NCBI GenBank assembly: GCA_003255745.1
Contig: QKYL01000154.1
Location: 62,001 to 126,000, forward strand
Direction: 5' to 3'
Source of the DNA: Paracoccus saliphilus
Lineage (GTDB): Bacteria; Pseudomonadota; Alphaproteobacteria; Rhodobacterales; Rhodobacteraceae
Length of the DNA stretch: 64,000 bases
Below the pieces are notes generated by a model, which was not told where the DNA came from, made no database searches, and worked only from the letters and a program-made list of their open reading frames with translations. This document shows, piece after piece, positions 34,648 through 56,208 of this stretch. A program made the position numbers and the translations under genes. Each line of letters begins with the position of its first letter. Position 1 is the stretch's first letter.

Positions 34648-34732
34648 GCGGGTGTGGCGAAATTGGCAGACGCACCAGATTTAGGTTCTGGCGCCGCAAG
34701 GCGTGGGGGTTCAAGTCCCTCCACCCGCACCA
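34648..34732 (+). tRNA. tRNA-Leu (anticodon TAG), integration site of the island
   Basis: An 85-nt class II tRNA with encoded CCA. The acceptor stem GCGGGTG pairs with CACCCGC, the anticodon stem CCAGA/TCTGG encloses TTTAGGT (anticodon TAG), a short variable arm GGCGCCGCAAGGCGT follows, and the T-arm contains GGTTCAAGTCC. The last 14 bases form the left 15-bp direct repeat of the integrated element, so the island restores an intact gene end. Confidence 0.96.
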
Positions 34733-34733
34733 T
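34719..34733. repeat. Left attachment repeat (attL)
   Basis: CTCCACCCGCACCAT, identical to 53644-53658. It comprises the end of the tRNA-Leu T-arm/acceptor stem, the CCA and one more base, a common core position for tyrosine integrases. Confidence 0.92.
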
Positions 34734-35282
34734 AGCGACAGTATTTTTTATTATAATTCAGCCGGCTACAGGTTTAGAGGCTAGTTTTATCCCCCAATTA
34801 ATCCCCCTGCGTGGTTGTTGATTCTTCGATCTATTGACTTGGTCCTTTTGCAAAACATCAGGGAACCGGGGGTGTATCTTTGCCGAGCCTCTGCGGCATC
34901 ACGAAAAGAATGATCTTCTTGGTATGCTGATAGGTTAGAGATACAGGCTTTTCCAGTACCCCGGGGGGGGGGGGCAGTAGAGGCGCTTCGGGTCCCATCA
35001 GCAGCAAGTCTACCTCCCCGGGTGCCGATTCTGAATGCTTGAAAGCGCGAACGTCTACAGTCCACCCGTCGTTGTCGGCGATCAATCTACAAACGCTGAC
35101 CTCTCAAATTTACTCAATCACAAATTTACTGCAGCGAGCAGTACTCAATTTTCGGTATAGGGTGAGCAGACGAGGCGGTGCCAACCTTCGCCTCGCACTG
35201 CTGCCGTCACCCAGAGTACCAAAGAAATGTAAGAAGCTGAACCGCCGAAAGAGTGATTACTTGAGGTTCTCCAACAGAATTC
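34734..35282. other. Left end of the island, no confident gene; contains a 12-G tract
   Basis: The first bases contribute a TTTTTT run downstream of the tRNA. A minus-strand frame, 34858-35085, opens with TTG and codes a plausible segment (DGWTVDVRAFKHSESAPGEV), but has no good start or ribosome site and may be a gene remnant. A run of 12 G (34963-34974, preceded by CCCC) lies in this frame. The rest, about 35100-35250, is AT-rich (22 of 60 G+C in 35101-35160). No known RNA or repeat was recognised. Confidence 0.5.
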
Positions 35283-35876
35283 TCATTGCTTGATATCAGA
35301 GAAGCGTTCCATCGGACGCGTGGGGTAGCTGATATACGGCTTCGACACTCTATGATCGGGAAAGTGTCTCTGTAAGAATTTCAGCATAGCCGTGGAAACT
35401 GGACCTTCAATCAGAAAAATACCACACCGATCTCGGAATTTAATCCAATGGCTCATGAGAACGCCCTGGCGTCTTGCACTCGGGCAAAGCCAGACCCAGT
35501 CCAGTCGCATTCTTTCATCGCTTGTATGATCGGGACGAAAGCAACTAGCCCCTATTATCCTGTAGTCCGAGTCATAGAAAGCGAATCCTATTGCGCTTGG
35601 ATCAGACCTGCCGTCAATCTCCCATTGCGGTGTGTCGTAACCAAATTCGCGCTGGAATAACTTTGCACGCCAGTAGATCTCTTCGCGAAGCCAGCTAGGG
35701 CCTCCGCGGTCAATCCAAGCGCCTTCCGGGTACTGCTCAAGATAGGGCTCTAGCATCAGACAAGGTGCCGGGGCGATTGATTGAGCGAACTTGTTATGCC
35801 GCTTATCGTGAGCTATTTCAGTATCAAGATATCCCTCAACATACGTGTATCCACATAAACTACATTGTTTTAACAT
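35283..35876 (-). CDS. Zinc-finger protein with Eco1/ESCO-like acetyltransferase layout
   Basis: A 197-residue protein. The N-terminus, CSLCGYTYVEGYLDTEIAHD then KRH, has the CxxC...H...H spacing of the C2H2_3 zinc finger found at the front of eukaryotic cohesin acetyltransferases Eco1/ESCO. The C-terminal half (DYRIIGASCFRP; LDWVWLCPSARRQGVLMSHW) looks like strands 4-5 and the acetyl-CoA pyrophosphate loop of a GNAT fold, with RRQGVL near the usual R/Q-x-x-G-x-G/A. The substrate is unknown. ATG 35876 follows GGAGTGGAAGA. It lies outside the BREX operon in the same direction; its composition is lower in GC than the chromosome. An unrelated fold cannot be excluded. Confidence 0.65.
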   Translation of the reverse strand: MLKQCSLCGYTYVEGYLDTEIAHDKRHNKFAQSIAPAPCLMLEPYLEQYPEGAWIDRGGPSWLREEIYWRAKLFQREFGYDTPQWEIDGRSDPSAIGFAFYDSDYRIIGASCFRPDHTSDERMRLDWVWLCPSARRQGVLMSHWIKFRDRCGIFLIEGPVSTAMLKFLQRHFPDHRVSKPYISYPTRPMERFSDIKQ

Positions 35877-36021
35877 TCTTCCACTCCATAAGTCTACTGC
35901 TCTAAATGGAGCTTACCTTCGATCAAAGAAGATTAACCCCGCAAATCCATGGACATTGCTTCCGATATAGGAACACGACAACCATCCATGTCCGCCAAGG
36001 CGCAGAATCTTTATAAGTAAG

Positions 36022-36044
36022 AAGAGCGGAGCCGTTGCGCTTTT
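36022..36044 (-). terminator. Weak hairpin after brxL
   Basis: AAGAGCG (36022-36028) pairs with CGCTTTT (36038-36044) with one G-T wobble around a 9-nt loop, about 10 bases past the brxL stop. The T-tail on the minus strand is poor, so terminator function is doubtful. Confidence 0.3.
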
Positions 36045-36052
36045 ACCTCCAC

Positions 36053-38101
36053 CTAATCGTGCAGCGCCTTGCGAAGTGCGTCAGGCGCATCGGCGTAGAA
36101 CAGAACCTGGACCTTCGTCGCAACGTCGTCCGAGAGGTCGATCAAGGCCCTGCGGCTGGACACAGGCACGAGCACGGTGGTTGCTCCCTTTTCCATGGCT
36201 AGTTCGACAACGTCGATTGGGTTGTGGATCGGTCCGATGGTACCGCCCAAGGTAATGCCGCCAGCGATAACGAGGCCGCCCCTCAACGGCTTTCCGAGGA
36301 GAGCAGAGCAGAGCGCGATGAGAACGCCGACGCCAAGCTGCTCGCCGCTCTTTGCAGCATCGAAAGCCCGAAGCTGGAGAGCAAATTCGTGCTCGCGCGG
36401 ATTGCGCTCACCGACAAGCTCCCGCGATCTTGCGTAAAGGTTCTGTTCAGCGATGCGCGCGCTTTCCCGGAACGGGCCAGGGGGCGACTGGTTCAGGATA
36501 CGGACGCCGCCGCCGGGGCTTTCCGTCACCTCCATACGGAACAAACCTGTGCTTTCGTCCTGGCCACCAGGGCTGATTGCCCAGACCTGGCCGGACGGTA
36601 GAGGGTCGGAACCGATGCTGTCCTCGCTCTGCAACTCCGGTGTCGAGACGAACTTCTCGACCCCATCCAAGCCCATCACGTAGCTGAATTGCGTGTTGCG
36701 GAACTCGGTCGAGCCGATGCGCTTCTGCTGCTCCTTCACACGTCGGCGCACCTCGAGAGCGAGACGCACCGCCCATTCAAGATCGTCGTCCGGTACCGCG
36801 ACGGTCGGATCGGGATAGAGAAGTTTCAACAGGCCAGAGACGGTCTTGTTGACCGCGTTCTGATCGCGGCCGGAAAGAGCGCCGCCGAAATGGACCCGTC
36901 CCTGGAGGACGTTGACGCGGCTTTGTGAGCGAAGGCGCGAGAAGCACTCGGCGAGGACGTCGCTGACGAGGCCGAAGCGGTCTGTGAAGAGCTCCTTGCT
37001 GACCTTGGGAACATCCCATCCGGGCAGGTAGCAGTGGATGCGGTCCATGAAGGCGGTGTCGTTCCGCATCTCGGGCGGCATCGGCCCAAACAGGTGTCCC
37101 ACCCGCTGCTGATGCTGCACGTCCACGTCGAAATTTCCGACCATGACGATACTGCCTTCGGCGCGGATGCTCTCCCGGCCGCGCGAAAATTCGCCCGACT
37201 CCATGTAGCCCTTCATAATGTTGACGCCGTCCTTCTGGTCGAAGGAAATGCCTGAGACCTCATCGAAGCAGACCACATCGTACTGGCAGACAAGGCCGCG
37301 CTGGCCGTTCGCCATGTTGACGAACATGCGCGCGACCGTTGCCTTGCCTCCGGATACGAGGTGGGCGTAGGGCGAAACCTGTTGGAAGAGGTGGCTCTTG
37401 CCAGTCCCGCGCGGGCCAAGTTCGATCAGATTGTAGTTGCGCTCCACAAAGGGGATCATGCGCAGGAGCGTCGTGTCCTGGGCGCGGGCGCTGAGAGAGG
37501 CGGGCTCCAGGCCGATACTGCGCAGGAGGAGGTCTTTCCACTCGGGCGTGGTCAGTTGGGCACGGCCGGCAGCCATCTTGTCTAGTATGTCGCGCGTGGA
37601 TAGCTGGATTTCACGGAGGCTCAGGACTTCGAACGGCCTGCCGCCCTTCTCCTGTGCGATGCTGGCGTCATAGCCGAGTTCGATCTCGGCATAGAAGCCG
37701 CCGGTGAGCATGCGTTCGTGGTCCAGGACAGTCTTGTCCGCGATGCGCACGTCGTTGAGGCGGAGGCTCGGCAGGGTCGCCAGGTAGCTGTCGGTCTTGG
37801 CGTCGAGCCGGGCGGTGATGATGTCGATGATGCGAACGGAGCCGCGGTCGCGCGCCTTCGACTTGAACAGTTCCTCTTCACCTGCGCGCACCGTCCGGTC
37901 GGAGAGTTGCGACTGCACCATCTGGAGGCCTTCTTCGATCTCCTCGGGCACAGTGCTGGCGCAATAGCGGCCGAGCATGAACTCGACCACATAGGTCGGA
38001 ACGGGGAACTGGCCGCGAAAACGGCGAACCAGATCCTTTCGCACGATGTGTCCGGGGAATGCTTCCGCCGCCTTGCGGTCCAGGTCGTCGAGCTCGATCA
38101 C
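36053..38101 (-). CDS. brxL: BREX protein BrxL (AAA+ with Lon-like C-terminal domain)
   Basis: A 682-residue BrxL. The N-terminal DNA-associated region (residues 1-200) leads to an AAA+ core with Walker A GPRGTGKSH at about 229-237 and Walker B VVCFDEVSGISF. The last ~150 residues resemble the Lon protease domain (KSGEQLGVGVLIALCSALLG, ITLGGTIGPIHNP). In that domain the catalytic Ser of the Lon GPSAG motif is Gln (GEQLG, 586-590) and the Lys position is also absent, so peptidase activity is not expected. BrxL is needed for phage exclusion in type 1 BREX. It starts at GTG 38101 with GGAGG inside the end of pglZ, the last gene of the operon. Confidence 0.93.
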   Translation of the reverse strand: MIELDDLDRKAAEAFPGHIVRKDLVRRFRGQFPVPTYVVEFMLGRYCASTVPEEIEEGLQMVQSQLSDRTVRAGEEELFKSKARDRGSVRIIDIITARLDAKTDSYLATLPSLRLNDVRIADKTVLDHERMLTGGFYAEIELGYDASIAQEKGGRPFEVLSLREIQLSTRDILDKMAAGRAQLTTPEWKDLLLRSIGLEPASLSARAQDTTLLRMIPFVERNYNLIELGPRGTGKSHLFQQVSPYAHLVSGGKATVARMFVNMANGQRGLVCQYDVVCFDEVSGISFDQKDGVNIMKGYMESGEFSRGRESIRAEGSIVMVGNFDVDVQHQQRVGHLFGPMPPEMRNDTAFMDRIHCYLPGWDVPKVSKELFTDRFGLVSDVLAECFSRLRSQSRVNVLQGRVHFGGALSGRDQNAVNKTVSGLLKLLYPDPTVAVPDDDLEWAVRLALEVRRRVKEQQKRIGSTEFRNTQFSYVMGLDGVEKFVSTPELQSEDSIGSDPLPSGQVWAISPGGQDESTGLFRMEVTESPGGGVRILNQSPPGPFRESARIAEQNLYARSRELVGERNPREHEFALQLRAFDAAKSGEQLGVGVLIALCSALLGKPLRGGLVIAGGITLGGTIGPIHNPIDVVELAMEKGATTVLVPVSSRRALIDLSDDVATKVQVLFYADAPDALRKALHD

Positions 38102-38102
38102 A

Positions 38103-40376
38103 TCAGTCCTCCCCGACCGTCAGCGTGCGGTGGACCAATACCCGACCGTCGTCATCCAGTACGACAAGGCAGGTGGCTTCACGCTCATGTTCGTCGCTGA
38201 CCAGGAACGACGTGCGGCCATGCTCGTCGAGAACCCTGCCGCCCTTGATCAGGCTCGGTCCGCTGGTCTCCGAACCGAAGCGTAGATCGACGTGGAGGTC
38301 GGCGCCGCCGGTCACTTCGACGCGCAGACGCAGCCCCTCCCACCTGGTTTGTCCAATGGTGACGGCGCGCTGTGCGCCATCGCTCGCCACCCTCAGGACG
38401 GGCAGGATGCATTCCTGCGGGCTGACGCCGCCATGCGCATACTCGTAGCCTGCATAAAATGACCGCGCGCCCGTTGACGTCGCCACCGAGACCTCGGGGT
38501 TCCAACTCCACGGAACCTGGAGATAGGACGTTTTGGCCTTCGCTTTCACCATAGCGCAACGCGTCCGCTTACCGTTGGGCTCTACGAGGCCAACATCGAG
38601 CACCGCGTGGGGCAGCCCGCCCGGCATCAGCAGCCAACCATGGTCGGTAACGATTTGAACGCTCCGTCCCGAGCGCACCAACTGAAGGATGCGGTCGACG
38701 GCATCGCGGATGCCTGTCGAAAGTCGCTCAGCTAGCCGCGCCCCCAGTGCGTGCCCTTCTTCATCGAACCTGCCGGTCTCCGCCCAGAGCTTCGCGTCGG
38801 GGAGAAGGGCGCTGTCCGTTTCCCAGCCTTGCGCTTCCATCAGCTTGAACAGCACGGGTTTCGTCGCCGGCTTGCCTTCTGGGGACAGTGGCAGAACGTC
38901 GGAGGTGGTCGGCGGGCCGCTTAGTAGGGACGCCACCGGCGAGACCATCGGCTTGCACGTCGCGGTGACGGTGGGGAACCCGGACCACATCCAGCCCAGC
39001 GAGACCTTCACGTCCTCATTCTCCAGGCGGCGGACGAGCTCACGTGCAAGGTCCATGCGCAAGCCGTCCACGAACAAAATCGTGGTGGCGTCGTGACCAG
39101 CCTCGGCCGGCGCGGCGAGCTTTACCTTGCCAACACGGATCAGCTCCTGGAGCGCGAGAGCGCCGTAATCCACCCAGGGCAGATAGATCGCACGCAGCGC
39201 TGCGGCGACGGCCTCGCGGTCGAGTTCGCGCGGCGCGACCGCAAGCCCCCGCATCGCGGCCCAATCCACATCGGCGCCTTTCGCAACGTAGGCTTGGGCC
39301 AGCGCATTGCCGTCATGGCTCGGCAGTGTCTCGGCGGCGGCGATTTTCACGAGGAACGCGAGGGCCTGCGCCAGGGGTGCTTCGCCGCGCCGCGACCAGA
39401 CCGTCTCCCGCCGCCATGCGTGCTTCGCTTCCAACTCACCGATTTTGGCTCTTGCAGCCTCCGGCGAAAGCTCGGTGAGCCCGAGGAGTTGCTGGCGCAG
39501 GTCCTTTTCATCCCGAGCATTCAAGCGTGGGTACGAATCTTGGTGCTCGAACAGCGTTCCAGGCTCTTCGAGGCTAAGATAGGTCACAACCTTCTCGAAG
39601 CCGGTGGAGGCGGCGAAGCGCGACCAGACCTCCGCCCAGCGCCCTTCGCGTTTGGCCAATCGCCGCGTAGCGTCCTGTGGAGACAGTTTGCGCGGATCGA
39701 ACTTCAACTGCTTTGCGGCAATGTTGGCGAAGGCCGCGAACCGCGCGGGGTCGCCCGACTCTGTGAAGGCTCCGTCGATCCAGTCGAGCATGTCGGCGGC
39801 GAGGTCGGGCGCGAGCAGCGCATTAAGTTGATCCGCGTTCCAGCGTTGGCCGCGCAGCTCCTCGACGGGGCGCGTGCAGAAGCGCAGCGCCGCGTGGGAA
39901 AGCGCTGTGCGGGTCGCATTGTCGTCGGTGATGCTTATTTTCAGCAGCCCACGTTCGGAGGTGAGGAAGCCGCGCAGCGTCCAGTCCTTGCCGTTGACGT
40001 GCCCGAACATGGTACCTGCCACCGTGAACCAGACCAGCGGCTGTAGGAGGGCTGGGCAGTCGTCGGCGCCCCTCAGCGTCTCGCGAGCGACGCCGGGCAG
40101 ATAGAGGATGGGCGTGCTCTCCTCCGGGATGACAACGACGGGAACGGCTCCGGCAACGGCCGCGCGCAACCAAACCGCCGGTCCGGTTCGTGTCGCTGCC
40201 TCGAACTCGCCGTAAGTCAGCAGCTCCGGAAGCCGTTCGCGCAGCGCTGGCAGAAGGGGCTCGAACTCCCGATTGACGTCGCACCACACCACCGCTTCCG
40301 GTGGCGCCTCGGCCGCGGCGTTGTAGCTCGCGGCGTCGTGCAGGGCGCTGACGAGGAAATCGAGAGGCGTCGTCAC
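38103..40376 (-). CDS. pglZ: BREX phosphatase/nuclease-fold protein PglZ (type B-like)
   Basis: A 757-residue protein whose C-terminal half is an alkaline-phosphatase-superfamily PglZ domain: LFVDGLRMDLAREL at about 434 and TDHGWLLMPGGLP at about 575 supply metal-binding Asp and His residues. The N-terminal part (VVWCDVNREFEPLLPALRE; RTGPAVWLRAAVAG; TPILYLPGVARE) matches the PglZ form called type B in BREX annotation rather than the classical type 1 PglZ. Translation starts at GTG 40376, overlapping the pglX stop as GTGA. It is essential in characterised BREX systems. Confidence 0.9.
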   Translation of the reverse strand: MTTPLDFLVSALHDAASYNAAAEAPPEAVVWCDVNREFEPLLPALRERLPELLTYGEFEAATRTGPAVWLRAAVAGAVPVVVIPEESTPILYLPGVARETLRGADDCPALLQPLVWFTVAGTMFGHVNGKDWTLRGFLTSERGLLKISITDDNATRTALSHAALRFCTRPVEELRGQRWNADQLNALLAPDLAADMLDWIDGAFTESGDPARFAAFANIAAKQLKFDPRKLSPQDATRRLAKREGRWAEVWSRFAASTGFEKVVTYLSLEEPGTLFEHQDSYPRLNARDEKDLRQQLLGLTELSPEAARAKIGELEAKHAWRRETVWSRRGEAPLAQALAFLVKIAAAETLPSHDGNALAQAYVAKGADVDWAAMRGLAVAPRELDREAVAAALRAIYLPWVDYGALALQELIRVGKVKLAAPAEAGHDATTILFVDGLRMDLARELVRRLENEDVKVSLGWMWSGFPTVTATCKPMVSPVASLLSGPPTTSDVLPLSPEGKPATKPVLFKLMEAQGWETDSALLPDAKLWAETGRFDEEGHALGARLAERLSTGIRDAVDRILQLVRSGRSVQIVTDHGWLLMPGGLPHAVLDVGLVEPNGKRTRCAMVKAKAKTSYLQVPWSWNPEVSVATSTGARSFYAGYEYAHGGVSPQECILPVLRVASDGAQRAVTIGQTRWEGLRLRVEVTGGADLHVDLRFGSETSGPSLIKGGRVLDEHGRTSFLVSDEHEREATCLVVLDDDGRVLVHRTLTVGED

Positions 40377-43300
40377 TTCGCCGCCTCCAATCGTTTCGCA
40401 GCGGCATCAAGCGCGGCGCGCTTCTCGGCCAGGGTGGTGTGGTGGTCGTTACGGCGCTCGCCGTTGAACACGTCGTACCAAGGCGCCGACGGGACGTCGT
40501 TGCCGCGATCCTTGTCCTTCAGGATTTTCGACAGGTCGTGCGTCAGCACGCCCGCCTTTATGAAGGGGCGAATGTTCTGGCGGAGGCCGTCGTCGAGGTC
40601 CGGGTCCCAGCCGAGCGGCTGCTGGGCGAGCGACTTCCAGCGCACGAAGATGTCGAAGGGCTTCTCGCCTTCAAGGATCTTTTCCAGCTTCTGCTGGAGC
40701 TCCCGGCCTTTCTCGTACCGCAGCGTGTTGTTCTCGGCCTTGGCGCGGGCGAGCCAGTCACCAAGCAGGGTGTAGGTCAGCTTGCGCAGGTTGGCCTGGT
40801 CGAAGCGGTGGTAGTGGACAAAGACTGAGAAGCCGTCCTTCAGCCCGTCCGAGATGTGCCAGAGGAAGGGACGCTGACCGAACAGGGCGCAGTGCTGCCG
40901 GAAGGCGCGGTCGCGTACCCAGGCTTCGAGCGAGCCATCGCGACCGACCTTCTTGTCCAGCGCCTCGTCGGCCTCGGCGACGAGGCGGCGCTCCAGGGCA
41001 TCGGACCAATCAGCCCCGAAGGCAACGGCGAGATAGGCGCGCAAGCGGTCTGCAAGAGGCTTTTCACCCGCGACAGATGGGACGCCGAAGAGGCCGTCAT
41101 TGTCTCCGGGCGCCAGTTCCGCGGCCTTTGCAATCCAGGCACGCGCCTCCTCTGAAAGGCCCATGCCCGGATCGGTTTCGGCGGGCCAGCGGTATCCAGC
41201 CAGACGCGCGAGCGCAACCTGCAGCGTAAACGGGCCGGTAGTGTTTCGTGGATGCCCGTGAAAGAGCCATTGGGTTGGATCGTCCGAATAAGGGTCAGGT
41301 ATGCTGCAGGGTGGTGTGTCGTCTTCGGAGTTCATCGACTCAATTGGATCGAAGGGAGCAGAGAGGATTGTTCCAACCTCAACCTTTCTATTTTGATTGA
41401 TTCCCCGGACCTCTTTCGTGAGGCCGCCCGACCAGCAGAATTCCCAAATTGCCGGCAGATCCTTCGGGTCATTCGGGACGATGGCGCAACAGTTCGAGTC
41501 GTAAATCTCGCCAGTATAAATGTTCGCTGGCAAGTCTCCCATCATACTCACTGAAACGCCTGCTTTTCCCCAATTTGGCTTTCCCCTTCGCCAATTCTGA
41601 GCAATATGATTGAGATGCCTCACTGAATCAGCGAATTTAAACAAATCTCCTGATTCATTCTCCCAGCGAATTGCATCGGACATTCCTCCAAAATATTGCG
41701 TAATTGAGGCTGTAGATTGGAAATATGCCCATACCTTTGGAACTGCCCTAAACTCCCAAAACTTTCCAATAAAGCGTGGGGCATCACCTGTTGTTGCACC
41801 CACAAGCACCGTCGCAAAGTCGCCGAGGGTTGTGCGCTTGCCGGATGGAACATCAATATAAATGTATGACTGATCACTTTCTCGGCTGATCCCAATACCG
41901 ATGAAATTTATTTTTTCTGCGATCAACAAACCTTTCTTCGTTTCATGGGGTTTTGACGAGCTCAAATCGAGCCCACAATATTTTCCGTTTTCGAGAGGTT
42001 CTATTCTCTCAATTATGCTTAGTCCAACCAACTCTCCTCCAGCCTGAGGGCTCCAAAATGCGTTTTCGCCCAGCCTACAAAACATGATAGGGCTGTAGTT
42101 TTCGATCAAATATTGGCGAAACTCTTCGTACCTCTTCAGAAACCACCAGCTTTGGGGAGCAACGACCGCTACTGATCCTCCTGGCAAACACAGGTCAAGA
42201 CTGCGGCGTATCATAGCTGTGGCTAGATTTGCCCGTTCGCGAGGAAATCGACGAAGAATATAGTCATTAAGGGTTTCAGTGAACTTCAGCTGCGTAAGAA
42301 ATGGCACGTTGGTTGTCACCAGCGTGAAGCTCTTGCGCAAAGCTGTTGCCGCATCTGCCATTCCTCGTGCCGAAATTGCACCCTCAGCGAGTTCGGGTTC
42401 TGCGAGCCGAGCCTTTTCCAGCAGAGGAGAAAATAGTCGATCAATTTCTGAAAGCCTCTCTAACTCGAAAAGATCTCCTCCAGCTGGTTGGAGCAACGTC
42501 CCAAGGACTGGTGCTTGTGCAAACAAGTCATGAAGTGCGGCTAAGGCGTACTCCAGTTCTGTGTCGCCGTCGGCGAGAGCGACGAATTCTCGCTTTGGTA
42601 GCGGTGGCGGAGCGCCTACCCAAGCCACTTGGGGAAGTGGCAGCGCTTGCCAGCCACCGATGCGCCACGCTGTCAGAGCGACTGCAAATGCGGCGATCTG
42701 CACACATCGCCCGTCTATCTCCAGCCCATGCAGGTTGTCGCGGAGTACCGCCGCGACCGCATCGGGCGGTGACAGATGTTCTTCAGCTTGCCGTAACGCC
42801 GTCAGGATCGCGAGCGCCTCGGTCAAGAAGTGCCCGGACCCACAGCAGGGATCCAGCATAGTGATAGCCCTGGTCTCCTTCGGCCAGCCGGGGAAGGTGC
42901 CCGCCGCTGGCCGCCAAGTGCTGTCCTCGCCCTCACGCACAAAGCGCAGCATGTCGAAGGTGTAATCGGGCAGCGAACAAGCCGCACGCAAGGTATCCTC
43001 ATCGACTGCCGATTGCGCCAGCGCCGGATTGGCCGCCAGCACCTTGCCCGCCCACCAGGCGCCGAGCGTGTTGTGCAGCAGGAAGCGCACCATGTAGGGC
43101 TCGGTGAAAAGCTGCGTGACCGCTGGCAGTTCATCGGCTCCGATCTTCACGCCGGAGTCGTTCACCGCCTGCTTCTCAGCCGCGCGCCAAAACTGGTAGG
43201 TCCAGCCCAGGCTGTCCTCGGCTTGGAAGACCTCAGCATCGAGCCCTGTGACGAGGCGGTGCAATTTCTGCGTATGGACCGGGTCGAGCTCGATCGCCAG

Positions 43301-43759: not shown

Positions 43760-43762
43760 GCG

Positions 43763-46700: not shown

Positions 46701-47200
46701 GGCAATCCGACTGCCCGTAGCACGATCCCAAGAGTGGCTTCGGCCGGATCGGAGGGGCCTGTTCCAAGTGTATCGCCGGCTGCCACGACGCCGCCCGCCC
46801 GCTTCGCCGCGATGCGAAGCTCTTTCAAGGGGGCGGCCACTTCCGGTGGCAAGTGATGGATCAAACCTTCGGCCGTAGCGCCGTCAGAAAACTCAAGATT
46901 CGTCCACAATGCGGCGAGCATGCTGGCAAGGTGGGACTTGCCAGAGCCGTAGAAGCCGGAAATCCAAACGGCCGGAGCGCTGTTCCCTCGGCCAACAGAG
47001 CCCAGAAATGCTTCCAGGATGCGCGCAAGCCCGTTGGCATAGGCGCCATCGCAAACGAATGTGGTGAGTTCTCCCCGCAACGTTTCCAGAGCTTCTGAAG
47101 TGGGTGGAAACGAAATTGTGGCAATGCCTTGATTGGCCAGTTGGTACCCGGACGGATCGGTGTAAAATGTTTCGCGATTAAGCATGATGCTGCCACTCAT
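43763..47200 (-). CDS. brxC: BREX P-loop ATPase BrxC (PglY-related)
   Basis: A 1145-residue protein. The N-terminal ATPase has Walker A GFYGSGKSH at 82-90 and Walker B LTLIVLDEVQQFI. A region of helical repeats follows (residues ~500-800), then long charged helices likely to be coiled coil near the C-terminus. BrxC is a core BREX component thought to form large assemblies on DNA. ATG 47200 overlaps the brxB stop as ATGA. Confidence 0.93.
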   Translation of the reverse strand: MSGSIMLNRETFYTDPSGYQLANQGIATISFPPTSEALETLRGELTTFVCDGAYANGLARILEAFLGSVGRGNSAPAVWISGFYGSGKSHLASMLAALWTNLEFSDGATAEGLIHHLPPEVAAPLKELRIAAKRAGGVVAAGDTLGTGPSDPAEATLGIVLRAVGLPSDFRAAQVAFWLADLGILDSVRGVLGSTFDTDIRNFILSPRFGAAVLKAKPDLASSPKDLSGLLRSQFPEPPAVTVDLLETMVRRALMLGRTELPLTLIVLDEVQQFIRQNPGMTLKIQTIAERLAGRFDGRVLLVATGQQALSDVQDLQKLLDRFPVQVALGEADVDAVIRKTVLRKKTGAETPIWGMLNTNAGEISRHLRGSRLAHSVQDDDEAVLDWPLLPSRRRVWERILRELDRTGLGGTLRGQLRTTLDAARTYGDKPLGHAVPVDFLYGRFSTEAYNAGLLPEETRNRIEVLRGGPEKDLLKARILMLVYMLGRIAPEADHHGVRAKAETIADLLIVDLAGEDELRRKVPELLQELRVDGAVIDVGSEWRLQTKESADWEFAYRSEEKAILADQSGLTRSRRELLDQAIETASASAASVTHGSSRQQRRIHRLRPEDKVPADGIPLRLRSGWNEDLAAVEKDIAAASTSDPSVHLLIPRHPTRDNELTTALTTWRAAEHVLQVRGVPQTDAGREAQSAMQSRAIKAQAVAKEIVREAVAQARVYQAGGKLIAGAPGEAVKEGATNALARLYPQFADGDHSGWDKVRDRAMRKDPDAMKAVDHAGAPENHAVCKALLAELGPGRKGSDLRSKFTSPPYGWSQDAVDGALIVLSNAGLVRVTGDDGKTASLPDLPRQKLGTCTFRGETTIITIAQRMPVRGLLTDAGIAFENNQEHLVLTALLERLESAVRQSGGEPPAPEPETVPNIASYKSLSGNDLLAALAADAATLRDKLKAWKAAAQKIGDRLPNWRLAERLVALDAPEQQGDLDDLRDGRRLLADPDPVPPLISAAADTLRAKLNAAHAAWEAAWQKGEQRLADDPTWAKLSPEQKHTIRQECGLLMVDKPAVDTPQAIAQALSRRGLSEWENMVKALPARIEDALAATAALLEPKARAVNLPGALLKSEAELDDWLAKVRDRIAKSLGDGPVIPKV

Positions 47201-47742
47201 AATGATTTATCAGTAGGAATTGGAATAGCGTGGTAGTTCCAACCGTCCCGCGCATCGAGCAAACGGTACACGCCAGCTGAATGCTTTCCGGGAAATCCGA
47301 CGAGGAGTCGTCCAGGGATGGATTCTGCAACTCGACTGATCAAAGTCGAAATTCGCACAACACCGAACAGCGCCCCGCAGCCGTCCACTGCCAGGATGTC
47401 ATTCGCAGTACAGGAACGGAGAGCATCTTTGATCTCATTGACCAAACTGTCCTCAATTTCAGGCAGAAGCCCTCGCAGCTCGGCCGGTTGCTCGACCAAT
47501 GGATCGAAGAACTCATGATGGCTGATCCAGGAGCCGAACCACCTAGATAAGGAGACTTGTCGCCAGCCGTGCCCGGCTTTGAGCGTCGCATGCTCGAACT
47601 CCGCAAGGCGGCCTGTGAAACGCCGTTGAAGAGACTTGTCATACCAGACGATCCAGACGCGGCCCGGCGGAGGCACATCTTCTGCCCAGGGAAGCCGGAC
47701 TTGCTTGCTGTATGCGGTGAGGATGTCATCAAACGTGTTCAA
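47197..47742 (-). CDS. brxB: BREX protein BrxB (DUF1788)
   Basis: A 181-residue protein matching BrxB in its hallmark segments: LPWAEDVPPPGRVWIVWYD, FEHATLKAGHGWRQVSL, GALFGVVRISTLI, GRLLVGFPGKHSAGVYRLL and the final ARDGWNYHAIPI. BrxB is conserved in type 1 and related BREX systems; its activity is unknown. It probably starts at TTG 47742 inside the end of the preceding gene, 14 bases overlapping; no better ATG precedes the conserved core. Confidence 0.85.
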   Translation of the reverse strand: MNTFDDILTAYSKQVRLPWAEDVPPPGRVWIVWYDKSLQRRFTGRLAEFEHATLKAGHGWRQVSLSRWFGSWISHHEFFDPLVEQPAELRGLLPEIEDSLVNEIKDALRSCTANDILAVDGCGALFGVVRISTLISRVAESIPGRLLVGFPGKHSAGVYRLLDARDGWNYHAIPIPTDKSL

Positions 47743-48571
47743 GTTCGGGCAACCCTAGAACGGCCGCCATAGGCTGACGGACGGATATCTCGGTCACATC
47801 GCCCGCTGACCGGACGCGGGCTAGCCCGACGGCTTCGGCTCTCCGCAATGCGTCGAGAGCTTGCTCGGGCGAAAGGTCCAGAACCATCATCCAGCCGGAG
47901 CTGAGAATAGACGGTCCGCCAAAACCCGAGGCCGTTGCAATGAGCGCCGCGAAGGCGACGGTCGGCGGAGAGGGTGTTACTCGCTGCCTAATTTTCTTAA
48001 CTGCTCCCTTCAAGTGCCCGCTCTGTGTCCATGATGAAGCACAGTTCTGAGAAAGAGATCGCAGCATCTTTTCGCTGAAGCGTTCGGGACGAGCTGCGAT
48101 TATTGCGTCCTCGAACAATGGCCATTGCAGGCTTTCCCCCACGGAACCCGCGAAGACGACAGGGGCTGTCTCCCGCAGCAACGGGTCACGTGCTAGGGCA
48201 ACGAGTAATGCCTGCAAGCGGCGCCCCTGGATGTCGCTTTTCCAGATCCTCATAAGCGTCTTTGTCAAAGGCGGCTGATCGCCCAGCCCATAGAGCGAGG
48301 CCACGTGCCTGTACGTCAGTCGCCTAGTGTTGCTAGTAGCCTTGCCAATTGCGTTCTCGTCGATGGCGGCTGACCGGAATTCTTCTGGTGTCGACGCGCC
48401 GGTCCCCATCAGGGCTTCAAGCTCACCGAACATCATGGTCTTGGACTGATGCGTTCCTCCCCCGGACAGCTTCATGCCAAACGAGGATAGCCTGGCGACT
48501 TCTGCCCGCACCCCGTGCCAAAGCGCAGTCCTCGATCCAGCGTGGGTGAGTGTTCCGCCGCTGCTCGCCAT
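47729..48571 (-). CDS. brxA: Probable BrxA-like BREX accessory protein
   Basis: A 280-residue protein in the position of brxA. The central part (TRRLTYRHVASLYGLGDQ, LMRIWKSDIQGRRLQALLVA, RPERFSEKMLRSLSQN, SSWTQSGHLKG) has the helix layout of DUF1819/BrxA-type proteins, but similarity to classical BrxA is distant and an extra C-terminal winged-helix-like segment is present. BrxA proteins bind DNA and are small. ATG 48571 follows GAAGGA and lies two bases after the stop of the upstream small gene. The assignment leans on synteny. Confidence 0.65.
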   Translation of the reverse strand: MASSGGTLTHAGSRTALWHGVRAEVARLSSFGMKLSGGGTHQSKTMMFGELEALMGTGASTPEEFRSAAIDENAIGKATSNTRRLTYRHVASLYGLGDQPPLTKTLMRIWKSDIQGRRLQALLVALARDPLLRETAPVVFAGSVGESLQWPLFEDAIIAARPERFSEKMLRSLSQNCASSWTQSGHLKGAVKKIRQRVTPSPPTVAFAALIATASGFGGPSILSSGWMMVLDLSPEQALDALRRAEAVGLARVRSAGDVTEISVRQPMAAVLGLPELEHV

Positions 48572-48572
48572 A

Positions 48573-48779
48573 TCAGTCCTTCTTTGGAGCGCGAGCATGT
48601 AGGATGTCTTCCTTCTTATTGTCGACCGATTTGGCTCGTTCGATAAATTGCCTTACCGCTTGGCGGATCAACCACGAAAGCGACACGTCTCTTGCCACCG
48701 CGAGCTCAGCCAAGGCGTCATGGTCCTGCTCTTCAAGACTAACCGTCAGCCGCGTGGACTTTCGGGGGCGACTGGACAT
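48573..48779 (-). CDS. Ribbon-helix-helix (CopG-like) DNA-binding protein heading the BREX operon
   Basis: A 68-residue protein with the RHH pattern: a basic beta strand (KSTRLTVSLEEQDHDAL) then two helices (ELAVARDVSLSWLIRQAV, RQFIERAK). ATG 48779 has GGAG at six bases; a TTG at 48791 sits directly on that ribosome site and is unlikely. As first gene of the operon, two bases before the BrxA-like gene, it is a good candidate for autoregulation of BREX, a place usually filled by WYL-type regulators. Confidence 0.8.
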   Translation of the reverse strand: MSSRPRKSTRLTVSLEEQDHDALAELAVARDVSLSWLIRQAVRQFIERAKSVDNKKEDILHARAPKKD

Positions 48780-49681: not shown

Positions 49682-49725
49682 CCAAATTAAGCAGGGGCCA
49701 TGATCATTCTCGGTCATCCGGAACG

Positions 49726-49765
49726 ACGTACGTTACGCCCCCCTAGTGGGGGGCGTAGCGTACGT
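49726..49765. repeat. 40-bp palindrome and CGTACG repeats, putative replication origin
   Basis: The arms ACGTACG-TT-ACGCCCCCC and GGGGGGCGT-AG-CGTACGT pair over 16 of 18 positions around a TAGT loop. CGTACG occurs at 49727-49732, 49759-49764 and 49819-49824, with a CGTTCG variant near 49793. The stretch lies between the convergent terS and primase genes, next to the replication protein gene as in satellite islands. Without a T-run it is a poor terminator on its own, though it could serve as one. Confidence 0.55.
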
Positions 49766-49842
49766 ATCCTCCCCGGTTTTGACATTCGACGACGTTCGTA
49801 GGTGAAACGTCGCAAAAACGTACGTCGCGTCGGAGTAGCATG

Positions 49843-51969
49843 CTACGGGTTCAGCCAGATTGCGCCGTCAGCTTCGCCAAGTATATTCTGGGCCACGAGG
49901 CTATTAATCGCATCATTAACGTTTCTTGTTTCCAACGTTTTGCCGGAACCATCTAGGGACACACCCTTGAGAGATGAGCGGAATGCCTGACGGTCCACCT
50001 TCCGTACAGTTACCGCACCCTCGTCGGTCTCGATCTGGTGGTCAGTGCTGTTCTTAACGGCATACTCCCGCAAAAGTGCCAGCACCTTTTTCTGCACGGG
50101 ACCACCCGCTAACTTAAGACGCTTGCCTGAGCCAGCACTAACGAACTCAACCCGGCACGATGTCACAGGGTCACCGTCCTCGTCCTCCCCCAACTCCACT
50201 GGGACCAGTTCAAAGCAGTGGTTCCAATCTGTTTCCAAGTCGCGCTGTTTGGTGGCCCGCGCTTGGTTCACTCCCGCTTTATCTGTACGTTTGATCTCGA
50301 TCGTAGTTTCCATGGCTGCATTCAGGGCGCTGCTACCGCGCGCTCCTCGTTCGGCATCTTTGCCAGTGTGGTGAACAATCAGCACCGTCGTATCAAGCGC
50401 TTCCTTCAGAGCTGTAATCCGACCGACGACCTTGTTCATCTCTGAGGCCGCATTTTCATCACCACCCCCAAAGCTACGAGCAAGGGTGTCGATCACGACG
50501 AGAGCGATCTTTTCGCCAGTCTCCGCCATGATATCCTTTCCCAGCGCCAGGATCGCTGACAGGTCGATATCGTTGCTATGCAAATCAATGGCTAGAGGCA
50601 GCACTTTCAGCTTGGGCGAACGCTCCATGCTCAACGCCATGAGGCGATTTCCAATGCTGCCCGTGCCTTCCGCAGAGACGTAGATGACAACACCTTGAAA
50701 AACCTTGTGGCCGTCGAAGGGCCGCCCACCCGCAATGCAGTTTGCCATTGCTAGCGCGTAGAATGTCTTGCCGGTCCCGGATGGCCCGAAGATCATCGCC
50801 ACACTGGAGCGAAGCAGGATACGCTTGATCAGGTAGTTTTGCTGCAAGTTTGCTTTTGCCTTGTCTGCAGCCAAGAGAACATGTCGGAACTGCTCCGCCC
50901 GCCGCATCACGGGATCATCGGGAGCCTTAGTTCCGCCTGCTAGAGCAGGCTTGAAGACCTCTTCAGTTTCCCCCATGTGAGGAACTAGCATGGCCACGTT
51001 GTCCGCGACTTCTGGATCGACTTCCAACCATATGGGTGTGACGTTGGTGAGATCGAGGCCAGCGAAATTCCACTCGCCGCGATCTGCCATCAGTCGTTTC
51101 TGACGGCGGAGCTTTGCGCGTCGGGCGATCTCAGAAACGTCCGCGCCGTTCTCTTTGGCCATCGCTGCCAACGAAGACATTGTCAGGCCTTTATGTCTAT
51201 TGAAGCCGGGCCACTTGCGGTTGATCTCCCCTGGCGTGAACATCTCGCCTTGAGCAGACCAGGCGATGGCAAGATCCATCCCTTGGCCTGAGCCTTGGGT
51301 GGCTCCATGTATTGCCATGAGCACGCTAATCCATTTGTCGTAGGGGACATCAGGGCTGACAAACTTCAGCAGCTCTTGAACTTCCTCATGGTCGGAAACC
51401 TGCTCCGTGGCGAGCGCCAAAGGTGTCGACCGTGAAGAGGACGCCTGCGCCTCCAACCAATCAGGCGCTGGTGCAACGTCTTCCATCGCAATGACGGAAT
51501 ACTGGCCTATCACGGCCGCGCGTTTTGAGTAAGCCTGCGAGGGTGGCGCCATGACATACCCCTTCGATTTGAGATCGACGCCCGGGCAGAGCTTGCCGGG
51601 ATAGACGGCGCCAGGCCTCGCCTTGAAGTAGAAGTGAAGCCCTCCACTGGGGGTCTTCACAGTATAGGTTTTAGGCATGGTCCATCCGTTCATCCGGAGG
51701 CACATTTCGTAAGCAGTCATGTCATCAACATCGACAACTACAAGGCCGCTGAGCTCACAGGCAATCGCGAGTTGATACTTGGCATCCGAGAACCACCAAC
51801 GAATTTGGTCAGCATCTCCAAACGCGCTATGAAAACCGCCTTCAATCGCAGGGCTCTTGTCCATCTTACAGGGCAGAACTTTGGCTCCCATCGCAGCATA
51901 AATGAGTGCCGCGTTGAGAATTTTGTTCTTGGGCGTAGGTTGAGCCTGAGGAAACGCGGAAGCCGACAT
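49843..51969 (-). CDS. Primase-polymerase/RepA-like helicase replication protein
   Basis: A 708-residue fusion. The N-terminal AEP primase-polymerase domain has the DxD motif VVVDVDD (Asp80, Asp82) and SGGLHFYF with His112. A PriCT-type region follows (~200-290), then a RecA/RepA-like AAA domain with Walker A FGPSGTGKT near 393 and Walker B LVVIDTLAR near 488. The C-terminus has a winged-helix look. Such proteins start replication of satellites and plasmids. ATG 51969 overlaps the alpA stop as TGATG, so the two are co-expressed. Confidence 0.9.
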   Translation of the reverse strand: MSASAFPQAQPTPKNKILNAALIYAAMGAKVLPCKMDKSPAIEGGFHSAFGDADQIRWWFSDAKYQLAIACELSGLVVVDVDDMTAYEMCLRMNGWTMPKTYTVKTPSGGLHFYFKARPGAVYPGKLCPGVDLKSKGYVMAPPSQAYSKRAAVIGQYSVIAMEDVAPAPDWLEAQASSSRSTPLALATEQVSDHEEVQELLKFVSPDVPYDKWISVLMAIHGATQGSGQGMDLAIAWSAQGEMFTPGEINRKWPGFNRHKGLTMSSLAAMAKENGADVSEIARRAKLRRQKRLMADRGEWNFAGLDLTNVTPIWLEVDPEVADNVAMLVPHMGETEEVFKPALAGGTKAPDDPVMRRAEQFRHVLLAADKAKANLQQNYLIKRILLRSSVAMIFGPSGTGKTFYALAMANCIAGGRPFDGHKVFQGVVIYVSAEGTGSIGNRLMALSMERSPKLKVLPLAIDLHSNDIDLSAILALGKDIMAETGEKIALVVIDTLARSFGGGDENAASEMNKVVGRITALKEALDTTVLIVHHTGKDAERGARGSSALNAAMETTIEIKRTDKAGVNQARATKQRDLETDWNHCFELVPVELGEDEDGDPVTSCRVEFVSAGSGKRLKLAGGPVQKKVLALLREYAVKNSTDHQIETDEGAVTVRKVDRQAFRSSLKGVSLDGSGKTLETRNVNDAINSLVAQNILGEADGAIWLNP

Positions 51970-52229
51970 CAGCAATGCTCCCCGTTCAGGTTGCTGGAGG
52001 AAGATGGTGCGCCAGTCGCCTCCCTCTTGGCTGACAGTCCAGCGACGAAGCTGCTGACTTCCGAGGCAGGCCAGCGGGAGACGCGACCGATCTTGACGGG
52101 GCGCGGGAAATCGCCGTTGGCAATAGCGCGGTAGACGGTGGCCCGGCTGAGGGCAGTCAGGTGGGTAACCTCATGGAGGTTCAGAAGCCGGTCGATCTGG
52201 TGATCCTGGCGGGAGAAAGCAGCGTTCAT
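51969..52229 (-). CDS. AlpA-type excisionase/regulator
   Basis: An 86-residue winged-helix DNA-binding protein with the AlpA/MerR-like core LLNLHEVTHLTALSRATVYR then FPRPVKIGRVSRWPASEVSS. In phages and PICIs AlpA proteins act as excisionase or activator of the replication genes. It is directly upstream of, and coupled to, the replication gene and divergent in role from the integrase 96 bp away, which lies in the same direction. Confidence 0.88.
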   Translation of the reverse strand: MNAAFSRQDHQIDRLLNLHEVTHLTALSRATVYRAIANGDFPRPVKIGRVSRWPASEVSSFVAGLSAKREATGAPSSSSNLNGEHC

Positions 52230-52325
52230 TGGTGTGTCCTATCATTACGAACACGCCCCAATATTCACATGATTCGCCGCGGGTCGTCCTGGTTGTTCCT
52301 GAGACGACGAATTATTTGAACGTTG

Positions 52326-53498
52326 TTAGTCCGCCGTTGGATATGCTAGCGAAGGCGTCATGCAGTGGCTTGCCCAGCGCTCCAGCAGCACTCGCCGTTG
52401 CTCCAGATAGTCCGTCCGGCGATAGGCCCGCACAACCTTACTACCGTTGACGTGGGCCAGCATCGTCTCGGCCACTTCATGCGGGGCGTCCGTGCATTCT
52501 GCTAGCCAGGTCCGTAGGCTGGAACGGAAGCCGTGGGGACGGGCCTGTAGACCTCTGCGCTCCATCAGGCGGGACATGGTGGCATCGCTGATGACGCTCT
52601 TCCTGGCCACAAATAGATAGCCGTCCCGTTCATGCCTGCGGGCAAGCCGGACGACCTCCTGCGCTTCTCGGGAGAGTGGCACCCGGAAGCTCTCTGTCGC
52701 GCCCGCTGGCCCTTTCATCTTCTCCGCAGGTACGATCCAGGTATCGCCATCAAACTCATCCACATGCGCGAAACGCACGGGGTGGGACCGCATACCCGTT
52801 AGGATAAGCAGCCGTAGCGCCAGGTGGGAAATAGACGGCTCGGAAAGGCTGAGATAGAAGTCTGGCACCTCGGCCCACGGCATGCTGGGGATGGCCTCTG
52901 CACGATGGCGCTGCTTGCCCAGGAGGGCCTTGGCCTTTGCAACAGCTTGAAGGTCAACGTCGATCCCCAGCGCCGCTGCATGCCGAAACACGATGTTGAG
53001 GCGGTCCATGGCCTTCATGGCTGTTGACGCCTTCTCGTGCCAGATGGGCTGAAGCGCATCGCGGATGTCGCGCTGGGTGATCTCGGCAATGGGCGTCTTC
53101 CCAAGCTTAGGCAGAACGTGCAGCTCCAGCGGACTGAACCAGCGGCCCGCCGCACCATCGCGCTTGAGGCTTGCCTTGTGGCTTTCAAAGGCATCGCGGG
53201 CCACAGCTGTAAGTAAGTTCTGGTCGTGTCTCCTCTCAACGCGTTGGCGTTCCCGTGCGTTGATTGGATCAACCTCATTGGCAATCATGGCCCGATACTC
53301 GGCCGCTTTCTCGCGCGCCTGCTTCAGGCTCACAGTGAAGATGCTGCCTAGGCCCATCTCGCGACGCCGACCATGGCAGGTGTAGCGAAAGACCCACTGG
53401 CCGCTGCCATCCTCGCGCTTGACCAGCCGCAGTCCGGCACCGTCTTCGTGCTTACCGGCAGGCAATGACTTCACCGATAGGGCGCTCAACTTGTGCAT
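52326..53498 (-). CDS. int: Tyrosine recombinase integrase
   Basis: A 390-residue integrase with an N-terminal DUF4102 arm-binding domain (KLSALSVKSLPAGKHEDGAG), a SAM-like core-binding domain, and a catalytic domain with Arg237 (TGMRSHPVR), His322/Arg325 (HGFRSSLR), His349 (MLAHVNGSKV) and nucleophile Tyr364. All active-site residues are present, so it should be functional. ATG 53498 is chosen over 53552 because the conserved N-terminus begins there. Its start lies 146 bp from the right attachment repeat, as expected for an integrase acting on the tRNA-Leu site. Confidence 0.94.
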   Translation of the reverse strand: MHKLSALSVKSLPAGKHEDGAGLRLVKREDGSGQWVFRYTCHGRRREMGLGSIFTVSLKQAREKAAEYRAMIANEVDPINARERQRVERRHDQNLLTAVARDAFESHKASLKRDGAAGRWFSPLELHVLPKLGKTPIAEITQRDIRDALQPIWHEKASTAMKAMDRLNIVFRHAAALGIDVDLQAVAKAKALLGKQRHRAEAIPSMPWAEVPDFYLSLSEPSISHLALRLLILTGMRSHPVRFAHVDEFDGDTWIVPAEKMKGPAGATESFRVPLSREAQEVVRLARRHERDGYLFVARKSVISDATMSRLMERRGLQARPHGFRSSLRTWLAECTDAPHEVAETMLAHVNGSKVVRAYRRTDYLEQRRVLLERWASHCMTPSLAYPTAD

Positions 53499-53643
53499 CT
53501 TGATCCCCCAATACATCCCCCAAGCATTATGCGATCTTGAGAGACGCAGCAAGATGCTCTGATCCTTAGGTATCTCATATTGATGAAAAATCTATGCCGG
53601 TTTAGACGCTAGAAGACTACCTGAAATTAAGTGACAATGCGCT

Positions 53644-53658
53644 CCACCCGCACCATCT
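53644..53658. repeat. Right attachment repeat (attR)
   Basis: CTCCACCCGCACCAT, identical to the repeat in the tRNA-Leu end. It is followed by CTTTTTC, probably the original terminator T-run of the tRNA before integration. Confidence 0.92.
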
Positions 53659-53661
53659 TTT

Positions 53662-54531: not shown

Positions 54532-54539
54532 CGTTCTAT

Positions 54540-54582
54540 CAGACAGAATGGTTTCGAAGATAATATGTAATTTTCTGAAACT
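54540..54582. promoter_or_regulatory. Divergent lysR-dabB control region with inverted repeat
   Basis: The AT-rich stretch between the two starts contains GTTTC (54551-54555) and GAAAC (54577-54581), an inverted repeat spaced as for a two-site LysR operator. Promoter elements were not resolved. Confidence 0.4.
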
Positions 54583-56183: not shown

Positions 56184-56208
56184 TCCCCCTTTGAACCAAG
56201 AGGTTCCC

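What the first reader, a model, noticed from the sequence alone, without database searches (positions are those of the whole stretch)
34719..53658. A phage-satellite (PICI-like) island that carries a complete BREX defence operon
The sequence shows an integrase, an AlpA-type regulator, a primase/helicase fusion, a palindromic repeat region and a lone terminase small subunit in the order known for Gram-negative phage-inducible chromosomal islands, bounded by 15-bp repeats at tRNA-Leu. No structural phage genes are present. About 12.7 kb of cargo is a full BREX operon, very large for a satellite of this class. The combination suggests a parasite of phages that protects its host from other phages while using a helper for spread. 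That interpretation is inference.
Basis: partly seen in the sequence, partly recalled or inferred. Interest (0 to 1): 0.87.

Follow-up and report, generated by a model that had tools for sequence, protein, structure and literature searches.

The report
Phage satellite carrying complete BREX operon
An 18.9-kb mobile island in a bacterial chromosome looks like a parasite of phages: it has its own copy of a gene that selects DNA for phage packaging and a DNA site like one that some phages keep beside their packaging genes, and it carries a whole BREX anti-phage defence operon as cargo.

Summary
An 18,938-bp island lies at tRNA-Leu between 15-bp repeats (34719-34733, 53642-53656). It holds integrase, AlpA, Prim-Pol/helicase, a palindromic ori-like gap, a lone terS and a six-gene BREX operon with intact motifs; no virion gene appears among its 11 main ORFs. 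New evidence supports the satellite reading. (1) Four relatives of this TerS lie, in the parts held, beside integrase/AlpA-like/replication genes, defence genes or an unclassified ORF, and not beside virion genes (by eye). (2) Islands whose integrase is 60-62% identical carry other defence genes (HmaABC; type I RM), two of them with a terS. (3) A site, G7-12...GTCCC...TACCTCCCC, lies 231-267 bp from the tRNA in three TerS islands. A pattern built from those three matched 2 of 2.9 million viral contigs; a looser one matched 4; in all 4 the site lies 0.5-2.7 kb upstream of terL. It is probably a cos/pac-type packaging site. BREX lies between this site and terS. Induction, packaging and helper are untested; three family searches of the genome showed no complete helper prophage. 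Best called a PICI-like satellite, a new variant of a known kind. One paper (passages) states that P2/P4-type elements lack BREX.

The parts
34648..34732 (+). tRNA-Leu gene, integration site (3' end restored by the island)
   Evidence: ARAGORN
34719..34733 (+). attL-like 15-bp direct repeat CTCCACCCGCACCAT
34963..35019 (+). packaging-site-like element: G12, GTCCC, TACCTCCCC (cos/pac-like, inferred)
   Evidence: exact pattern, 0 in 100 shuffles; shared with L002, L003 and with 4 viral contigs upstream of terL
35283..35876 (-). GNAT-like acetyltransferase ORF, cargo
   Evidence: Pfam, below curated cut-off (E 0.003)
36053..38101 (-). BrxL
   Evidence: PADLOC E 9e-294; Walker A
38103..40376 (-). 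PglZ
   Evidence: PADLOC E 5e-212, (Pfam PglZ below cut-off)
40373..43759 (-). PglX methyltransferase
   Evidence: PADLOC E 0; DPCCGSG and NVPF motifs
43763..47200 (-). BrxC
   Evidence: PADLOC E 0; Walker A
47197..47742 (-). BrxB
   Evidence: PADLOC E 4e-51
47729..48598 (-). BrxA
   Evidence: PADLOC E 3e-73
48573..48779 (-). 68-aa ribbon-helix-helix protein, overlaps the start of brxA; possible BREX regulator (inference)
   Evidence: Pfam RHH_1 39.8 bits
49187..49681 (+). lone terminase small subunit TerS (conserved start probably 49196)
   Evidence: Pfam Terminase_2 above cut-off; phrog_51; AF2 model, best PDB matches are small terminases; start
49717..49834 (.). inverted and direct repeats, candidate replication origin
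49843..51975 (-). Prim-Pol / PriCT_2 / AAA_25 primase-helicase
   Evidence: Pfam; motifs
51969..52229 (-). AlpA-type regulator
   Evidence: Pfam 45.5 bits
52326..53552 (-). tyrosine integrase
   Evidence: Pfam Arm-DNA-bind_3, Phage_int_M, Phage_integrase; catalytic residues read by eye
53642..53656 (+). attR-like 15-bp direct repeat

Best explanation
The island is an integrated, capsid-less phage satellite of PICI-like design that carries a full type I BREX operon. Shown from sequence: a tRNA-Leu att site with int, AlpA, Prim-Pol helicase, an ori-like palindrome, a lone TerS, a packaging-site-like element near the att end, BREX, and no virion genes among the 11 main ORFs. Inferred: a phage entering the cell leads to AlpA expression; Int and AlpA excise the circle; the primase-helicase replicates it from the palindromic origin into concatemers; the satellite TerS loads them at its own cos/pac-like site onto the helper's TerL and portal, so that the 18.9-kb DNA rides in the helper's capsids. 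Between such events BREX modifies host DNA and blocks unrelated phages. The cargo slot is the stretch between packaging site and terS: 0.15 kb in L003, 1.5 kb in L002, 14.2 kb here.
For: TerS family and phage relatives, fold (moderate model). TerS relatives L004 (helicase, toprim primase, integrase), L002 (AlpA-like ORF) and L092 (defence genes) have no virion genes in the parts held, by eye. Same integrase family with AlpA-type and replication genes and other defence operons; L073 and L074 also with terS. The site shared by three TerS islands, used as a pattern, hit 2 viral contigs, both upstream of terL; a looser pattern hit 4, all upstream of terL. The phage TerS beside the site in L153 and L156 are weak relatives of the island TerS. 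Island edges by repeats and by homology. Palindromes next to the replication gene.
Against: No induction or packaging data. No complete helper prophage was seen in the genome: one phage-like 18-kb element and one GTA-like cluster. The primase is as close to plasmid RepA-type helicases as to phage ones. terS is convergent with the primase, unlike canonical PICIs. None of the 19 same-genus loci fetched gave a TerS hit with the queries used, though several are cut by contig ends. The two pairs of junction-bearing phages have different TerL families (phrog_2 and phrog_38), so the site may be a more general feature than one helper group. L092 has only a variant site and was not found by the pattern. 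TerS is not recognised by family in L154 and L155.
Confidence: 0.75

Rival explanations
1. A non-packaged integrative defence island: the TerS-like protein is a co-opted DNA-binding protein for replication or regulation, and the island moves rarely (natural transformation, generalised transduction or a conjugative helper).
For: The Pfam TerS match covers only residues 11-65; none of 19 same-genus loci with a related integrase or helicase gave a TerS hit; no helper found; terS sits beside the origin-like repeats.
Against: PHROG TerS profiles also cover residues 44-122; the packaging-site-like element lies upstream of terL in 4 of 4 matching viral contigs; the TerS C-terminal tail weakly resembles that of a phage protein between site and terL.
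Confidence: 0.15
2. A decayed prophage that kept int, alpA, replication genes and terS and acquired BREX.
For: Module genes have phage relatives.
Against: Module genes are intact; no terL, portal or capsid among the ORFs scanned; a similar minimal architecture recurs elsewhere with other cargo.
Confidence: 0.05
3. Composite: a satellite and a separately acquired BREX operon that landed inside its borders. This does not exclude the best explanation.
For: BREX is 61.9% G+C and the module 58.1%; of 125 same-genus genomes only the own one has this BrxA at 1e-20.
Against: BREX lies in the interval that holds defence genes in L092 and is short in L002 and L003; the island's repeat occurs only twice and the only recombinase among the 11 main ORFs is the integrase. 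Gain of cargo in this way is normal for satellites.
Confidence: 0.3

Closest known systems
Gram-negative phage-inducible chromosomal islands (PICIs, e.g. EcCICFT073; PMC6092414, passages seen)
   Same: Specific att site, integrase, AlpA, primase-helicase with an origin-like region after it, terS, no virion genes, accessory genes.
   Different: terS convergent with the primase; a 12.5-kb BREX operon between the att end and terS; no comparison with PICI proteins was made here.
PICMI satellites of Vibrionaceae (PMC10803314, passages seen)
   Same: int, alpA, prim core; defence cargo, including type I and II RM; a PICMI is packaged as a concatemer in full-size capsids, which would also solve the size question here.
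   Different: No terS homologue found in PICMI115; small (6.1 kb); integrated at fis.
P4-like satellites with defence hotspots (PMC9122126, passages seen)
   Same: Integrase, AlpA-like regulator and primase-helicase (PMC6092414 passage: distant homology of the P4 proteins to those of PICIs); defence genes.
   Different: P4 uses the helper's terminase; [quoted passage not shown]
BREX type I (six-gene definition recalled)
   Same: brxA-brxB-brxC-pglX-pglZ-brxL in this order.
   Different: Preceded by a 68-aa ribbon-helix-helix gene and carried on a TerS-encoding island.

Membership tests
PICI (Gram-negative) | specific attachment site with direct repeats | tested here: met
PICI (Gram-negative) | integrase plus AlpA-type regulator | tested here: met
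PICI (Gram-negative) | primase/rep followed by a replication origin | tested here: inconclusive
   primase-helicase present; palindromic repeats 3' of it; origin activity not shown
PICI (Gram-negative) | packaging module: terS (present in some PICIs) and a cos/pac site | tested here: inconclusive
   terS met; site inferred from its place upstream of terL in viral contigs, not shown biochemically
PICI (Gram-negative) | no virion genes of its own | tested here: met
   (11 main ORFs; short ORFs not scanned)
PICI (Gram-negative) | canonical gene orientation (terS transcribed with the replication genes) | tested here: not met
   terS is on the opposite strand; order as described in PMC6092414 passages
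PICI (Gram-negative) | genes exclusive to known PICIs | not tested
   no reference PICI set or SatelliteFinder models were used
PICI (Gram-negative) | induction by and packaging in a helper phage | not testable with these tools
   needs experiment
BREX type I | brxA, brxB, brxC, pglX, pglZ, brxL in one operon | tested here: met
capsid-forming PICI | own capsid and head genes | tested here: not met
   none among the ORFs scanned

The most novel reading that the evidence does not exclude
A satellite lineage of Rhodobacterales encodes its own TerS and a matching cos/pac site shared with phages, keeps its cargo slot between that site and terS, and uses it to ship whole BREX-size defence operons in helper capsids. 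The shared site would allow candidate helper phages to be named from sequence alone.
Probability: 0.55. Interest if true: 0.85.

Novelty: new variant of a known kind. Interest (0 to 1): 0.72.

Why it matters
How an operon as large as BREX moves between chromosomes is poorly known (general knowledge, not searched here). An element that phages can package while it carries BREX would make phage satellites vehicles for some of the largest innate defence systems, and raises a direct question: does BREX spare the helper? The site shared with phage terminase regions gives a sequence handle on which phages might mobilise it.

Tried and rejected
Empty site: a 678-bp joined-flank query matched 123 of 125 same-genus genomes (own included), but no listed match runs more than 13 bases past the junction; the list was cut, so later matches were not seen. 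The right-hand block (LysR-type and NuoL-like genes, by eye) is elsewhere in L090 and L091, so no direct empty attB could be shown.

Relatives of this TerS: at 1e-5 only the own genome in 61 (relatives) and in 394 (family) genomes. A 3-sequence profile found weak matches in 4 further genus genomes and in 4 further family genomes. Of these, G420 has two satellite-like elements (L073, L074); L075 and L077 read as prophages by eye; L076 and L078 were not settled; L079-L081 were fetched and not read. The viral-contig scans with the TerS alignment, the primase and the integrase gave no relative. The L073-type TerS has 55 relatives in viral contigs (26-55% in the best segment), so it does not mark satellites by itself; their gene context was not examined.

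Dropped rows: of 16 integrase matches outside the own genome, 15 were fetched at length (G468 was not, because its contig ends just after the gene). Several of the 15 (L048, L050, L051, L057) are cut by contig ends, so absence of TerS there says little.

Helper in the own genome: the only Terminase_2 is the island's. Phage_portal rings twice. TerL (phrog_2) rings at the same two places and at C145, whose ORF reads as a RecD-type helicase by eye. Other portal and TerL families were not searched.

Palindrome control: window 15, L003 16, L004 18, L043 11, L045 12; L073 7, L074 8, L002 9. Control windows (120 at each of 140, 160 and 250 nt from the left flank, which is mostly coding): mean 6.5-7.0, 95th percentile 9, maximum 13. 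So three of eight are above the control maximum, two are above the 95th percentile only, and three do not stand out. The convergent ORF in L003 matched no family and did not align with the window primase at 1e-4; its likeness to the primase C-terminus is by eye only.

Site caveats: the window, L002 and L003 gave the first pattern and L153/L154 helped to set the second, so only L155 and L156 are new there, and conserved letters in 7 of the 8 aligned sequences hold by construction; only L092 was found otherwise. One half of the pattern (G6 with GRGTCCCRY) also matched L076, far from its terS, probably by chance. A Pelagibacter phage with a weak TerS relative was fetched (L161); the site pattern did not match in the 3.5 kb held.

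A bidirectional terminator was considered for the palindrome: the consensus scan found none there. GTA-borne transfer of the whole island was set aside because GTA particles carry about 4 kb (recalled).

The TerS model is moderate (mean pLDDT 67.3, 3 sequences); no PDB match is significant by E-value (best 0.034), though the top 7 are all small terminases.

I corrected counts that included the own genome, the L003 context, the origin of site conservation and the host description.
Full report
WHAT IS THERE. The window is contig C125:62001-126000 of an unnamed 3.75-Mb genome. An island of 18,938 bp lies between two copies of CTCCACCCGCACCAT (34719-34733 and 53642-53656), the first across the 3' end of tRNA-Leu (34648-34732). 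No further copy was found in the 12.0 kb left of the window or in the last 14.6 kb of the contig. G+C is 59.9% inside against 67.2% outside. Homology of the right flank to two related genomes starts 10 and 19 bases into that flank, and left-flank homology ends at the tRNA, so both edges are supported without the repeats.

GENES. From the right: integrase, AlpA and Prim-Pol/PriCT_2/AAA_25 primase-helicase, all on the minus strand; a 161-nt gap with an 18-nt inverted repeat (94% complementary) and further repeats; terS on the plus strand; a 68-aa ribbon-helix-helix gene that overlaps brxA; brxA, brxB, brxC, pglX, pglZ, brxL; a GNAT-like ORF below the Pfam cut-off; then 0.55 kb with only short ORFs (75-92 aa) to the tRNA. 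Motifs of BrxC, PglX, BrxL and the primase are intact, and those of PglZ and the integrase read as intact by eye. No virion gene appears among the 11 main ORFs scanned.

IS THE TerS REAL? Pfam Terminase_2 is above its cut-off (34.9 against 26.1 bits). PHROG terminase small subunit profiles cover residues 11-65 and, separately, 44-122. In the phage collection 73 of 50,697 records match at E up to 0.01, all under 60% identity; the lowest E-value is a Pelagibacter phage (26%, 6e-9, no gene annotated there), and 11 of the 20 listed records are annotated terminase small subunit. No record of 72,556 plasmids matches. The AF2 model is moderate (pLDDT 67.3). Its seven best PDB matches are small terminases (NV1, PaP3, SF6, SPP1-like), none significant by E-value; of the ten best viral matches seven have names, all terminase small subunit.

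RELATIVES OF TerS. One genome-contig scan gave 3 relatives from 41 pattern matches. L004 (54% over 56 residues, N-terminus lost) lies beside a DUF3987 helicase, a toprim primase, a small ORF that I read as AlpA-like (no Pfam match) and a tyrosine integrase, in the window's order. L003 (54%) lies 0.47 kb from tRNA-Thr and converges on an ORF of no known family that is cut by the contig end. L002 (59%) lies 1.8 kb from tRNA-Lys, next to an ORF 38% identical to the L004 AlpA-like protein. One of four viral contigs matches was a relative, L092 (43%); its upstream genes include Vsr, a type II methyltransferase and a large protein with a weak restriction-enzyme match. By eye no virion genes lie in the parts held.

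RELATIVES OF THE MODULE. 15 of 125 same-genus genomes, the own one included, have a relative of the integrase at E 1e-60 or better. G457 (L043) has a 16-bp repeat at tRNA-Thr and about 0.1 kb before int, 18.7 kb apart; it holds int (62%), an HTH_17/AlpA-type gene (AlpA below cut-off), a toprim primase, a DUF3987 helicase and HmaA, HmaB, HmaC. L046 has int (60%), the same AlpA-type gene and type I restriction genes. In another genus of the family, G420 holds two elements, L073 and L074, with int 61-62% identical to the window's, an AlpA-like ORF (no Pfam match), helicase, toprim primase and a terS (97.6 bits to Terminase_2 in L073) that overlaps the primase stop. L073 continues into a type I methyltransferase (HsdM), and L074 has a type I restriction match further on. 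So the integrase/AlpA/replication chassis carries exchangeable defence genes, with terS in some. Against this, none of the 19 same-genus loci L043-L061 gave a TerS hit with the five TerS queries used. At 1e-20 this BrxA is in the own genome only, of 125.

A PACKAGING-SITE-LIKE ELEMENT. In 1.7 Mb of window and loci the only runs of nine or more G or C were two 12-G runs, one in the window (34963) and one in L003 (9804). Aligned with L002 they share G7-12, GTCCC and TACCTCCCC in the same orientation, starting 231, 267 and 255 bp from the tRNA end. The pattern GGGGGGGN{15,25}GTCCCN{9,16}TACCTCCCC matched only L002 and L003 of 152 loci, and the window (0 in 100 shuffles). Built from these three alone, it matched 2 viral contigs in IMG/VR. 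In both the site lies upstream of a terminase large subunit gene: 0.95 kb in L153, where it overlaps the 3' end of a terS-like ORF, and 0.52 kb in L154. A looser pattern, informed by those two as well, matched 4 contigs in all: in L155 the site is 0.93 kb upstream of terL; in L156 it overlaps the end of a Terminase_2 gene and lies 2.7 kb upstream of terL. TerS is recognised by family in L156 (above the Pfam cut-off) and weakly in L153 (below it), and not in L154 or L155, where only position and, for L155, a weak C-terminal likeness to the island TerS suggest it. The L153 and L156 TerS are weak relatives of the island TerS (30% over 82 residues, E 8e-4 in the record; pairwise E 2e-6 and 1e-5); no match was found in the L154 record. 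Two control patterns (block order swapped; complemented blocks) matched 0 times in 162 sequences. L092, found by its TerS and not by the pattern, has a variant (G8, GGGTCCCAT, ACCTCCC) about 0.3 kb upstream of its terS. GTCCC and ACCTCCC are invariant in the 8-sequence alignment, for seven of them by construction. Phages keep cos or pac sites at or near terS (recalled), so I infer that this is a packaging site; that step is not shown by experiment. In the window BREX and the GNAT-like ORF lie between this site and terS.

REPLICATION SIGNAL. Inverted repeats 3' of the replication gene score 15 in the window, 16 in L003, 18 in L004, 11 in L043 and 12 in L045, against a control 95th percentile of 9 and maximum of 13; L073, L074 and L002 (taken 3' of terS) score 7, 8 and 9. 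The sequences differ while the position is kept, as expected of replicon-specific origins (inference).

HELPER. The own genome has one GTA-like cluster (C54, by eye) and one 18-kb phage-like element on C1 with portal, protease-capsid, connectors, Terminase_4, TerL, tape measure and integrase. Neither looks like a complete helper. The helper may be a phage not resident in this genome; the PICMI helper is a virulent phage (PMC10803314, passages). The closest TerS folds (NV1, PaP3) and the P22-like portal gene after terL in L156 point to podovirus-like helpers; this is a lead only.

LITERATURE. PMC6092414 (passages) defines PICIs by att sites, exclusive genes, induction, origin, interference and packaging. 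[quoted passage not shown] PMC10803314 (passages) reports type I and II RM on PICMIs. PMC12824646 (passages) reports BREX_I in ICE/IME-type and unclassified regions of Vibrio europaeus, and two satellites without known cargo. PMC10121019 (passages) finds BREX in 49 E. coli islands at two hotspots, #1 and #37, where P4-like satellites also integrate, without saying, in what I saw, that BREX lies in a satellite; BREX on a satellite may exist there unnoticed. PMC8791490, PMC9966839, PMC11389934 and PMC13376191 were seen as passages and did not describe one. Searches: 'phage satellite' with BREX (19 papers listed; passages seen in 5 of them), 'PICI, BREX, satellite' (5, all seen as passages), 'phage satellites' with Rhodobacterales (0), 'phage-inducible chromosomal island' with Rhodobacter (10 listed, none opened), the site string with terminase (0). 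None of what I saw reports a BREX-carrying PICI-like satellite; most subscription papers are not in the library.

VERDICT. Family membership is not claimed: the orientation differs, and induction and packaging are untested.

Noticed in passing
own genome C1, L071:12794 to L072:10550: About 18-kb phage-like element with portal, fused protease-capsid, connectors, Terminase_4 TerS, TerL, tape measure, tail chaperone and integrase but few other recognised genes; a truncated prophage or something like a capsid-forming satellite.
   Followed up: partly
own genome C54, L070: Gene-transfer-agent-like cluster (recognised by eye; portal and TerL matches).
   Followed up: no
L043:802-19508: 18.7-kb sibling island at tRNA-Thr with an HmaABC defence operon and the same integrase family.
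   Followed up: partly
L073, L074: Two TerS-encoding islands in one genome of another genus, with integrase 61-62% identical to the window's and type I RM genes.
   Followed up: partly
L052:12418-19171: 6.7-kb island at tRNA-Leu(GAG) with 16-bp repeats and a related integrase (48%).
   Followed up: no
window 53657-59600: The block right of the island (LysR-type and NuoL-like genes, by eye) lies elsewhere in related genomes, not next to this tRNA-Leu; a rearrangement or second insertion.
   Followed up: partly
L155:876-3545: The terminase large subunit of this viral contig appears to contain an intein.
   Followed up: no
upstream of terS in window, L002, L003: A shared AGCCCA stretch a few tens of bases before the terS start; possible promoter or operator (seen by eye).
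   Followed up: no
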